Source: Leucobacter sp. Psy1 (GTDB lineage: Bacteria; Actinomycetota; Actinomycetes; Actinomycetales; Microbacteriaceae). From it: a DNA stretch of 64,000 nt. The notes beneath the pieces are model-generated. The model saw only the letters and a program-made list of their open reading frames with translations, searched no databases and was not told the DNA's origin. Every line of letters begins with the position of its first letter. Position 1 is the first letter of the stretch. Positions 10,969 through 13,068 of this stretch are shown here, piece by piece. The stretch is from the NCBI RefSeq assembly GCF_020096995.1, contig NZ_CP083692.1, positions 2,542,001 to 2,606,000 on the forward strand, read 5' to 3'. The position numbers and the translations under genes were made by a program.

Positions 10969-13068
10969 TTACGCGCGGGCGATGAGATCGGCGTTCGTCG
11001 CAGTCGCCTCGACGCGCTCGACGAGACCGCGGATCGCGTCCTCGGTGCTCGAGCCCGAGAGCGAGCGGCGCAACTGCTGCACCTTCGCCGCGTCCGCGTC
11101 GCCGCGGAGCAGCGACTCGCGCTCGGTGTAGGTGCGTGCGACATCGATCGCGGGGAAGATCCACGCGGCCGCGGCATCGCCCGAAAGACGGACGGTGCTG
11201 TTGACGACGGGAAGCAGCGCCTTCACCAGCGCCTTGTCGGCTGGGTTACCGGTCTTCGTGTCTGCGGTCGCGATGATCGTCAGCGAACCGGCATTCTCGA
11301 GGTTGCGGGCCGCGGAGAGCAGTCGCTTCACCTGCAGCGTTGCCACACCCTCGGGGTCATCGCTGGCGTTCCGGCCACCGGTCGGCACGGCGTCCGCGTA
11401 GGCGCGGGCGACATCGGTGACCGACTCGAGCAGCACGATGACATCGTGCCCGAGCTCGACGAGGCGCTTGGCGCGCTCGACGGCGAGCTCGGCGACGGTG
11501 GTGTGATCCTCCGTCGGACGATCGAAGGTGCTCGCGATGACCTCACCGTTGATGGTGCGCTGCAAGTGCGTGACCTCCTCGGGGCGTTCCGAGGTGGCGA
11601 CGAGCATGAGGTGGGCGTCGGGGTGATTCGCCGAGATCGCTGCCGCGATGTCACGGACCAGCGTCGACTTACCGGCTCCCGAGGGTCCCGAAATGAGTGC
11701 CCGCTGACCGAATCCGATCGGGGCGACGACATCGAGCACGCGCGTCGACGTCTGGTCGCGAGTGGTCTCGAGACGCACTCGATCCTCCGGGTAGAGCGGG
11801 GTCAGCTCGGCGAAGTCGCCGCGTGCCTGCTGCTCCTCGGCGGACCGGCCGTTGACCGTGTCGACCTTGACGATCGCGTTGTACTTCTGGCGGCCGTTGC
11901 CGTCGCCCTCGCGAGGCTGGCGGATCGAGCCGGTGACCGCGTCGCCCTTGCGCAGGCCGTACTTCTTCACCTGGCCGAGCGAAACGTACACGTCGCTCGT
12001 GCCGGGGAGGTACCCGCTGGTGCGGACGAATGCGTAGTTGTCGAGCACGTCGAGAATGCCCCCGACGGGCAGCAGCACGTCGTCGTCCGACAGCTCGGGC
12101 TCGAAGTCGTCGCCCTGTCCGCGGCGCTTCCGGTCGCGCTGGCGGGTGCGCGTCGAACGCGCAGCGTCGCCGCCCTTGTCGCCCCGGTCGGAGCCGTTCC
12201 GGTCGCCGCCGTTCTTGTCGCCGCCGGACTTCTCGTTCCGCTCGCCCTTCTCGGACTGGTCGGAGGACTTGTCGCCCTGCTTGGCGTCGCGACCCTGGTT
12301 CTGGTTCTGGTTCTGGTTCTGGTTCTGGCCAGAGTTCTGCTTGCCGTTCTTGCCTCGCCCGCCGCGGCCGGATTTGCCCTTGCCCGCATCATCGGCGGAG
12401 GATTCGTCGCCGTCGCTCTGCGCGGCGGCGGTCTCGGTCTCGGCGGGGGCGGAGGAAGCTGACTGCTCAGGCTGCTGCTCCCCCGACGACGCGTCGGCGG
12501 CCTCGGCCGATTCGGCGGCCTTCGCAGCCTGCGACTTGCGGCTGCGCGACGTGCGCTTCGGCGCGGCGGAGGCAGCGTCGGCGGTCGTGGCGGCGCTCTG
12601 CGCAGCGCTCTCGTTCGAGACCTGCTCGGCGTTCTGATCCGATCCGTCGGTTGCCTGCGCCGCGTCGGCGGCAGGGCCCGCATCCGTGTCGGCCGTCTTC
12701 TTCCGGGTGCGGGTCGTGCGCTTCTTCGGCGCGGTCTGCTCGGCGTCCGCCGCGGCGCTCGGCGTCTCGGCCGGAGCCTGCACCTCGGCCGGAGACGAGG
12801 CTTCGGCGCTCGCTGCACCGGCGTCATCCGCGTCTGCGGCCTTCTTCCGGGTGCGCGTGGTGCGCTTCTTCGGCGCCTCTGCCTGCGCTTCGGCTGCCGT
12901 CTCCGCAGCCGGAGCCGCGGCGTCGGACGCGGGCTGAGCCGACGAGTCCGTGGCCTCGGGCGCTGCGGTCGCCGTGCTCACGCGGCGCGAAGCGCGGCGG
13001 CGCGGGGCCGCGGCAGTTTCGTCAGCCGGGGTCGATTCGGGGGTGATGTCTGAGGAGTTCTGCTCCAC
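10969..13068 (-). CDS. rho: Transcription termination factor Rho, with divergent motor domain
   Basis: Rho normally ends transcription by binding nascent RNA and translocating with ATP. The 699-aa protein starts at GTG 13068 (AAAGGA seven bases before it; ATG 13104 is less likely). Residues 1-330 are a disordered extension rich in Ala, Glu, Ser, Lys, with KKRTTRTRKK repeats, an NQ run and an Asp/Gly/Asn-rich stretch. The primary RNA-binding fold follows (about 340-440) and is well conserved. The ATPase half aligns without gaps but departs from the family: P-loop GPSGAGKST instead of PPKAGKT, LLESVTD instead of LLDSITR, Q-loop ASDDPE for TGGVD, R-loop TGNPAD for TGSKMD, and Gly where the arginine finger should be. 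The Glu and Arg of ERPEEVT remain. ATP may still bind; normal translocation is doubtful. Confidence 0.88.
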   Translation of the reverse strand: MEQNSSDITPESTPADETAAAPRRRASRRVSTATAAPEATDSSAQPASDAAAPAAETAAEAQAEAPKKRTTRTRKKAADADDAGAASAEASSPAEVQAPAETPSAAADAEQTAPKKRTTRTRKKTADTDAGPAADAAQATDGSDQNAEQVSNESAAQSAATTADAASAAPKRTSRSRKSQAAKAAESAEAADASSGEQQPEQSASSAPAETETAAAQSDGDESSADDAGKGKSGRGGRGKNGKQNSGQNQNQNQNQNQGRDAKQGDKSSDQSEKGERNEKSGGDKNGGDRNGSDRGDKGGDAARSTRTRQRDRKRRGQGDDFEPELSDDDVLLPVGGILDVLDNYAFVRTSGYLPGTSDVYVSLGQVKKYGLRKGDAVTGSIRQPREGDGNGRQKYNAIVKVDTVNGRSAEEQQARGDFAELTPLYPEDRVRLETTRDQTSTRVLDVVAPIGFGQRALISGPSGAGKSTLVRDIAAAISANHPDAHLMLVATSERPEEVTHLQRTINGEVIASTFDRPTEDHTTVAELAVERAKRLVELGHDVIVLLESVTDVARAYADAVPTGGRNASDDPEGVATLQVKRLLSAARNLENAGSLTIIATADTKTGNPADKALVKALLPVVNSTVRLSGDAAAAWIFPAIDVARTYTERESLLRGDADAAKVQQLRRSLSGSSTEDAIRGLVERVEATATNADLIARA
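12295..12330 (-). repeat. Hexanucleotide repeat inside rho encoding (Asn-Gln)n
   Basis: Five perfect copies of CTGGTT (plus strand) at 12295-12324 and a degenerate sixth encode alternating Gln-Asn in the disordered N-terminal region of Rho. The number of copies could change by slippage without shifting the frame. Confidence 0.9.

What the first reader, a model, noticed from the sequence alone, without database searches (positions are those of the whole stretch)
10969..12000. Rho with a conserved RNA-binding half but a degraded motor
The ATPase half aligns to E. coli and Mycobacterium Rho without gaps, so a frameshift is not the cause. Yet P-loop lysine context, Walker B Asp (now Glu), Arg of LDSITR (now Asp), Q-loop GGVD, R-loop Lys, EEFKGTGN and the arginine finger are all replaced. 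The catalytic Glu and adjacent Arg of ERPEEVT are kept. This Rho may bind RNA without translocating, or work by another mechanism, and would probably resist bicyclomycin.
Basis: partly seen in the sequence, partly recalled or inferred. Interest (0 to 1): 0.72.

Follow-up and report, generated by a model that had tools for sequence, protein, structure and literature searches.

The report
Rho that lost its motor
A bacterial protein that normally pulls itself along RNA to stop gene transcription has kept its RNA-gripping half but lost parts of its engine, across a whole genus and repeatedly in related bacteria, so it probably now does a different, engine-free job.

Summary
The protein keeps Walker A (GPSGAGKS), catalytic Glu and Arg valve, but lacks the Walker B Asp, arginine finger, Q-loop, R-loop Lys and EEFKGTGN motif. 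It is one stage of a lineage-wide decay. Of 52 Leucobacter Rhos, 38 lack Walker A, 37 have the catalytic Glu replaced by Ala, and none keeps K336 or G339; 22 order relatives and 76 named relatives all keep the five catalytic motifs. Primary RNA-binding pocket positions are invariant in 52 of 52. The usual conservation order is inverted, yet motor-half dN/dS stays 0.02-0.18, and 45 of 45 good Leucobacter genomes keep the gene. Similar decay occurs in other Microbacteriaceae genera and in one further family; a single origin of Walker A loss is rejected on a PrfA tree (p-AU 0.001). Best reading: a de-motorised Rho retained as a non-translocating RNA-binding factor. How it acts is untested. Ten literature searches found no report of it.

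The parts
10969..13068 (-). rho gene, likely GTG start at 13066-13068 (699 aa); the ORF extends to the GTG at 13104 (711 aa)
   Evidence: ORF; AAAGGA upstream of the GTG; N-terminal regions of related proteins; NCBIfam NF006886 362.5 bits, cut-off 315
12115..13068 (-). low-complexity N-terminal extension, probably disordered: A/S/R/D-rich with four basic repeats (PRRRASRR, PKKRTTRTRKK twice, PKRTSRSRKS) and an NQ repeat; no Pfam Rho_N domain matched
   Evidence: composition and motifs; DNA repeats D1-D4; no PF07498 match; disorder is inferred from composition, not predicted by a tool
11836..12063 (-). primary RNA-binding domain, PF07497, intact
   Evidence: Pfam 87.6 bits; positions L58, Y62, F64, R66, D78, Y80, K109, Y110 (E. 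coli numbering) invariant in 52/52 Leucobacter
10972..11817 (-). motor half (RecA-like fold kept, coupling motifs lost), residues 430-711
   Evidence: PF00006 74.7 bits; AF2 block pLDDT 80-94 in most of it, 63 and 68 in two blocks; best PDB match 7oqh M. tuberculosis Rho, TM 0.74
11665..11688 (-). Walker A GPSGAGKS, intact (K181 equivalent is G)
11569..11589 (-). [quoted passage not shown] D210 -> S just before
11422..11442 (-). Walker B VIVLLES: Asp265 -> Glu
11413..11415 (-). R269 equivalent -> Asp
11350..11388 (-). Q-loop VPTGGRNASDDPE: GGVD -> DDPE
11233..11256 (-). R-loop KTGNPADK: K326 -> Pro
11200..11223 (-). EEFKGTGN -> KALLPVVN (only N340 kept)
11122..11124 (-). arginine finger R366 -> Glu
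9877..10950 (-). prfA-like gene (release factor 1), 18 nt downstream; used as the independent marker for trees
   Evidence: ORF; relatives in 179 of 192 loci; PrfA tree; named by recognition, not by a family search
13210..14175 (-). upstream co-oriented gene, thrB-like
   Evidence: ORF; named by recognition, not by a family search

Best explanation
This is the genome's orthologous Rho, in a lineage that has been converting Rho from an ATP-driven RNA translocase into a non-translocating RNA-binding factor. Shown by sequence: the primary RNA-binding domain and the core fold of the motor domain are kept under purifying selection, while the RNA-pulling loops, arginine finger and Walker B Asp are gone here, and Walker A and the catalytic Glu too in most congeners. 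Inferred: it still binds C/U-rich nascent RNA, helped by a basic low-complexity tail, and probably still oligomerises. Inferred and least certain: it acts on transcription without translocation, for instance by standing on RNA polymerase or nascent RNA and inactivating or marking elongation complexes, or simply by coating RNA. In the window species the intact P-loop and catalytic Glu may still bind, and perhaps slowly hydrolyse, ATP, making it a transitional form.
For: Motif table over 52 Leucobacter, 22 order relatives and 76 named relatives: 38/52 no Walker A, E211->A in 37/52, K336 and G339 kept in 0/52, against all five motifs in 22/22 and 76/76. RNA-binding pocket positions invariant 52/52. 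At PrfA identity 90-95%, canonical pairs (75) have median motor identity 98.3% and RNA-binding domain 94.4%; Leucobacter no-Walker-A pairs (447) have 68.2% and 88.7%. Motor-half dN/dS 0.020-0.175 in 13 no-Walker-A pairs and 0.070 for the window/G073 pair. Gene kept in 45/45 good Leucobacter genomes and 267/268 good genomes of the family sample. No second Rho. Fold kept. More than one origin. Literature: E211A (E. coli) and E386A (M. tuberculosis) abolish hydrolysis without a drastic effect on ATP or RNA binding or oligomeric state (PMC4499133, passages); stand-by models generally assume allosteric rather than motor action (PMC8964686, passages).
Against: Nothing biochemical was measured. Nine Leucobacter Rhos keep all five catalytic motifs, and G017/G020 still pass the TIGR00767 cut-off, so some congeners may still be motors. 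The RNA-binding domain is itself somewhat less conserved in Leucobacter than in canonical pairs at matched PrfA identity (88.7 against 94.4%). NusG is intact, as it would be if Rho still worked normally. Intrinsic terminators are not enriched at convergent gene ends, as might be expected if Rho termination had been lost: 4/186 ends in four genomes with decayed Rho against 5/178 in four canonical ones. M. tuberculosis Rho, once proposed to act without motor action, was shown to be a bona fide motor (PMC4499133). The stand-by route in E. coli was measured with wild-type Rho, and the P297S mutant used there to block the stand-by site is described as fully inactive (PMC8964686).
Confidence: 0.62

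Rival explanations
1. A divergent but still working motor: other residues take over the roles of Walker B Asp, arginine finger and loop lysines, so the window Rho still translocates.
For: Walker A, catalytic Glu and Arg valve are intact in the window protein; D265E is conservative; the K->T change in the R-loop of M. tuberculosis Rho only slightly weakens activity (PMC8828861, passages).
Against: Q-loop, R-loop Lys, EEFKGTGN and arginine finger are all replaced, some by opposite charge or Pro, with no obvious substitute; most congeners have also lost Walker A and E211; motor identity collapses far more than RNA-binding-domain identity.
Confidence: 0.15
2. A dying gene: Rho termination is dispensable in these bacteria and the motor is eroding on the way to gene loss, with the RNA-binding end eroding last.
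For: Graded decay; C-terminal truncation in some congeners (19-37 aa after position 345 in ten proteins, against 71-78 in 40 and 63 in two); one in-frame TAG in the match of G005; dN/dS of the C-terminal part higher (0.04-0.63 in the nine no-Walker-A pairs with at least 59 codons left, 0.02-0.14 in six canonical pairs).
Against: Gene kept in 45/45 good Leucobacter genomes; no in-frame stop in the other 51 matches; motor-half dN/dS at most 0.18 even where Walker A is gone; replacements fixed in at least 90% of 38 proteins, e.g. E211A, S230A, H239Q, E333R, though shared ancestry can explain fixation.
Confidence: 0.15
3. Regulatory or storage oligomer: the protein forms filaments or condensates on RNA, like inactive hyper-oligomers of E. 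coli Rho, and protects or sequesters RNA rather than affecting RNA polymerase.
For: Long low-complexity tail with basic and NQ repeats; E. coli Rho forms inactive filaments and disordered regions modulate Rho in other bacteria (PMC11829017, abstract and passages).
Against: Low-complexity N-terminal regions are seen in canonical relatives too (L003, L086, L095); no direct evidence of oligomer state.
Confidence: 0.07
4. Artefact: frameshift, misassembly, or a second canonical rho elsewhere.
For: None found.
Against: Gap-free alignment to M. tuberculosis Rho; one complete contig with one rho; a protein 92% identical over 381 aa with the same motif states in another genome, G073.
Confidence: 0.01

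Closest known systems
Mycobacterium tuberculosis Rho (PDB 7oqh)
   Same: Closest solved relative: sequence E 3.8e-129, top Foldseek hit, TM 0.74; long hydrophilic N-terminal region; RNA-binding domain aligned with a single one-residue gap
   Different: M. [quoted passage not shown] passages); the window protein lacks Walker B Asp, Arg finger, Q- and R-loop motifs
Escherichia coli Rho
   Same: Same two-domain order, primary RNA-binding site and core fold
   Different: 40-43% identity in the fold alignments; most translocation residues replaced; N-terminal Rho_N domain not matched
E. coli Rho E211A / M. tuberculosis Rho E386A laboratory mutants
   Same: 37 of 52 Leucobacter Rhos carry the same Glu->Ala change in nature; in the mutants hydrolysis is lost without a drastic effect on ATP/RNA binding or oligomeric state (PMC4499133, passages)
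   Different: The window protein itself keeps this Glu; the natural proteins that lack it have lost many other motifs as well
Rho-like sequences WP_236262298.1 and WP_146920178.1
   Same: Found by the RNA-binding-domain model, without convincing ATPase-domain hits, and discarded from a Rho conservation survey (PMC11829017, section 28)
   Different: Their organism and sequence could not be looked up here; whether they belong to this group is unknown

Membership tests
Transcription termination factor Rho (family) | Rho RNA-binding domain PF07497 | tested here: met
   87.6 bits, cut-off 27
Transcription termination factor Rho (family) | RecA-like ATPase domain PF00006 | tested here: met
   74.7 bits, cut-off 29.5; the pieces given of L082 (34.9) and L188 (41.0) also pass
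Transcription termination factor Rho (family) | Curated equivalog cut-off TIGR00767 (509.45 bits) | tested here: not met
   402.1 bits in the genome, 400.6 for the protein; only 2 of 54 Leucobacter genomes pass
Transcription termination factor Rho (family) | Curated equivalog cut-off NF006886 (315 bits) | tested here: met
   362.5 bits for the window protein; the piece given of L082 scores 232.6 and fails
Rho as ATP-driven translocase | Walker A GK[ST] | tested here: met
   GPSGAGKS in the window; kept in 14/52 Leucobacter
Rho as ATP-driven translocase | Walker B Asp265 | tested here: not met
   Glu in window and G073
Rho as ATP-driven translocase | Catalytic Glu211 and Arg valve 212 | tested here: met
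   ERPEEVT kept in the window; E211 kept in 14/52 Leucobacter
Rho as ATP-driven translocase | Arginine finger R366 | tested here: not met
   Glu
Rho as ATP-driven translocase | Q-loop GGVD and R-loop Lys326 (secondary RNA-binding site) | tested here: not met
   DDPE and Pro; note that Lys326 is Thr in the working M. tuberculosis Rho
Rho as ATP-driven translocase | RNA-stimulated ATPase, unwinding, termination | not testable with these tools
   needs purified protein
Rho as ATP-driven translocase | Hexameric ring | not testable with these tools
   only a monomer was modelled
Rho2 short-form paralogue (NF041509) | Curated cut-off 628 bits | tested here: not met
   376.1 bits; it is the only Rho found in the genome

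The most novel reading that the evidence does not exclude
In several lineages of actinomycetes the widespread termination motor Rho has been turned, more than once, into an ATP-independent RNA-binding factor that still works in transcription or RNA fate, so these bacteria live without Rho translocation while keeping the rho gene; they would be natural separation-of-function mutants between Rho's RNA/RNA-polymerase binding and its motor.
Probability: 0.5. Interest if true: 0.93.

Novelty: new variant of a known kind. Interest (0 to 1): 0.8.

Why it matters
[quoted passage not shown] tuberculosis and M. luteus (PMC8828861, passage of the introduction). A clade that keeps the gene under selection while losing the motor gives natural material for an open question: how much of Rho's job needs translocation, and how much needs only RNA and RNA-polymerase binding. 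The graded series (near-canonical G017/G020, intermediate window/G073, no-Walker-A majority, C-terminally truncated proteins) lets each step be tested with existing proteins. It also means that the annotation 'transcription termination factor Rho' may mislead for these bacteria.

Tried and rejected
Second canonical rho: none found. Frameshift or misassembly: rejected. NusG decay as a partner signal: not seen. NusG passes its cut-off in 30 of 30 genomes; the alignment used 27 of these (G142, G303 and G163 dropped because my text filter missed them). The KOW domain is 82% identical on average between ten canonical genomes and 16 others (Leucobacter and other low scorers); within the groups it is 95% and 87%, so slightly looser in the second. 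Compensation by intrinsic terminators: tested on 200 kb from each of eight genomes with my own crude gene caller and hairpin rule. Convergent ends: 4/186 (four genomes with decayed Rho, the window's included) against 5/178 (four canonical). Co-directional gaps: 14/181 against 10/199; 10 of the 14 come from G142 (10/44, 22.7%, shuffled 2.7%), the genome with the most truncated Rho, which could be compensation in that one lineage but it also has the lowest GC content. The rule is strict and the samples small, so this is inconclusive. Coding-strand purine bias, prompted by PMC13323073 (abstract start and passages): genomes with decayed Rho had coding GC skew nearer zero (-0.017, -0.005, -0.009, +0.005) than canonical ones (-0.040, -0.024, -0.055, -0.037); four against four related genomes with differing GC content, not used as evidence. 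A single origin of no-Walker-A within Leucobacter is not rejected (p-AU 0.246), so decay may have happened once there; a single origin of all 49 in the tree is rejected (p-AU 0.001; it did not finish), with the caveats of a quick tree of one gene and long branches. Rows left out of that tree: 13 of 192 loci without a prfA match, short prfA matches, duplicate loci, and two of every three named relatives. The AF2 model has low confidence in the RNA-binding domain (block means 32-64 over its first 90 residues) and says nothing on oligomers. Literature: ten searches; Leucobacter with 'Rho-dependent termination' or with 'termination factor' gave 0 papers; most subscription journals and all bioRxiv preprints are missing from the library, so absence from print is not established. 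No paper was read whole; abstracts, passages or single sections were seen. A 2013 Rho survey by D'Heygere and colleagues is recalled and was not looked up.

Full report
WHAT IS THERE. The window carries rho on the minus strand at 10969-13104 (711 aa); the likely start is the GTG at 13066-13068, preceded by AAAGGA, since related proteins show V-E-Q/S-N there. It lies between a thrB-like gene and a prfA-like gene. The genome (G000, 3,246,778 bases, one contig) has one Rho: TIGR00767 at 402.1 bits, below the curated cut-off of 509.45; the only other hit is 36.7 bits, like secondary hits of about 32-43 bits in most relatives, which I take for F1-type ATPases without having identified them.

THE OBSERVATION. 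Against M. tuberculosis Rho the motor half aligns without gaps.

NOT ONE GENE BUT A LINEAGE. A search of the 54 held genomes of the genus found rho in 52 (the two misses are 72% and 76% complete; 45 of 45 good genomes have it), with only 2 of 54 over the Rho cut-off. I fetched and aligned the rho of all 51 congeners with a match. With the window they make 52: five catalytic motifs complete in 9; Walker A present but arginine finger lost in 3; Walker A present with Walker B Asp and finger lost in 2 (the window and G073); no Walker A in 38. E211 is Ala in 37, Thr in 1, Glu in 14. K326 is Lys in 3; K336 and G339 are kept in 0; N340 is kept in 52. The five motifs are complete in 22 of 22 order relatives (a 23rd order genome, G051, showed no Rho-level match) and in 76 of 76 named relatives. 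The named set is the best 80 of 587 matches to the window-led alignment, less four Leucobacter loci left out as duplicates. Some congeners also lose most of the C-terminus.

WHAT IS KEPT. The RNA-binding domain is intact (PF07497, 87.6 bits), and eight positions of the primary RNA-binding pocket are invariant in 52 of 52 (the list of pocket residues is recalled). The core of the motor fold is kept: PF00006 74.7 bits; an AlphaFold2 model with block confidence of 80-94 in most of that half, whose best PDB match is M. tuberculosis Rho at TM 0.74. The N-terminal 318 residues are low-complexity with basic repeats. At PrfA identity 90-95%, canonical pairs (75) have a median 98.3% in the motor and 94.4% in the RNA-binding domain; Leucobacter no-Walker-A pairs (447) have 68.2% and 88.7%; Leucobacter pairs that keep Walker A (54) have 67.0% and 86.1%. 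Among 12 no-Walker-A proteins of other genera, at PrfA 70-80% (34 pairs) the figures are 33.7% and 66.4%, against 93.2% and 80.6% in canonical pairs. So the normal order of conservation is inverted; the RNA-binding domain is also somewhat looser than in canonical pairs, but far less so.

SELECTION. With a Nei-Gojobori count of my own, motor-half dN/dS is 0.020-0.175 in 13 pairs without Walker A (some sharing a sequence), 0.070 for window/G073, 0.075 and 0.047 in two other Leucobacter pairs, and 0-0.051 in six canonical pairs. The gene is therefore not drifting freely, although the C-terminal part is looser (up to 0.63). Replacements fixed in at least 90% of the 38 no-Walker-A proteins where all 76 canonical ones have another residue include E211A, S230A, H239Q, F301L and E333R; common ancestry could explain these.

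RECURRENCE. In 299 sampled genomes of the family (Microbacteriaceae by the named relatives) 256 pass the cut-off and 293 have a match at E 1e-40. Of the 30 non-Leucobacter matches below the cut-off I examined 26, plus four just above it; two partial genes were dropped, leaving 28. Twelve of the 28 lack Walker A, in genera g27, g88, g36 and g48; the g88 and g39 proteins end before the arginine-finger position. On a PrfA tree of 114 rows the no-Walker-A group needs 9 changes, at least 2 forced by strongly supported branches. Holding the 49 together is rejected (p-AU 0.001); holding the 37 Leucobacter ones together is not (0.246). In a class-wide sample 189 of 196 pass the cut-off; of the 7 that fail, one is the window genome, two look like partial genes in fragmented assemblies, and four belong to another family, f41. 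Of 15 f41 genomes in that sample I examined 10, eight chosen for low scores: six lost GK[ST] and three of these also lost E211, while two others of genus g140 (L303, L304) are canonical.

HOW IT PROBABLY WORKS. [quoted passage not shown] passages). E386A in M. tuberculosis Rho or E211A in E. coli Rho abolishes hydrolysis without a drastic effect on ATP/RNA binding or oligomeric state (PMC4499133). The window Rho therefore most likely binds RNA through its primary site and cannot translocate; ATP binding may remain. What it then does is open. Stand-by models have Rho on RNA polymerase and generally assume allosteric change rather than motor action (PMC8964686, passages), which a motor-less Rho could in principle still bring about. 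Against this, the one precedent I know for motor-independent Rho, M. tuberculosis, was overturned (PMC4499133), and the stand-by experiments used wild-type Rho. My tests for genome-wide consequences (intrinsic terminators, NusG, coding skew) gave nothing decisive.

KNOWN OR NEW. An alignment of over 1200 species found most key residues conserved across bacteria (PMC4499133, passage). A 632-sequence survey set aside two Rho-like sequences for lack of a convincing ATPase domain (PMC11829017, section 28), which may be an unrecognised sighting. The searches listed under Tried and rejected found no description of motor-less Rho in Leucobacter. It is a member of the Rho family by domains, fold and uniqueness in the genome, but it passes only one of two curated Rho cut-offs and lacks several defining features of Rho as a motor.

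Noticed in passing
L303-L312 (family f41, same class): A second actinomycete family shows the same decay within its genera: Walker A lost in 6 of 10 proteins examined (of 15 genomes in the sample), E211 changed to Q, A or T in 3. The family is unnamed in the data.
   Followed up: partly
L185, L188-L191 (genus g88, genomes of 1.2-1.6 Mb): Rho frames of 412-444 aa end at ...EELLDIATSVVAL or similar, just past the R-loop region and before the arginine-finger position, with no Walker A and no catalytic Glu: the shortest motor remnants seen.
   Followed up: partly
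window 12295-12342: In-frame repeat of a 6-nt unit (CTGGTT on the + strand) coding an (NQ)n run in the low-complexity tail of Rho; such runs are prion-like in other proteins (recalled).
   Followed up: no
L074 (G005): The search reports one in-frame TAG inside this rho match; several congeners also lose this end.
   Followed up: no
L293-L302 (G142, genus g88): Terminator-like hairpins follow 10 of 44 genes with a co-directional gap of 60 bases or more, against 2.7% in shuffles, more than in the seven other genomes tested; possibly compensation for lost Rho, possibly lower GC content.
   Followed up: no
L223-L302: Coding-strand GC skew is nearer zero in four genomes with decayed Rho than in four with canonical Rho; too few and related to interpret.
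   Followed up: partly
window 19592-19664 (+) and 41998-42070 (-): Two tRNA genes; no other Rfam family reaches its gathering score in the window.
   Followed up: no
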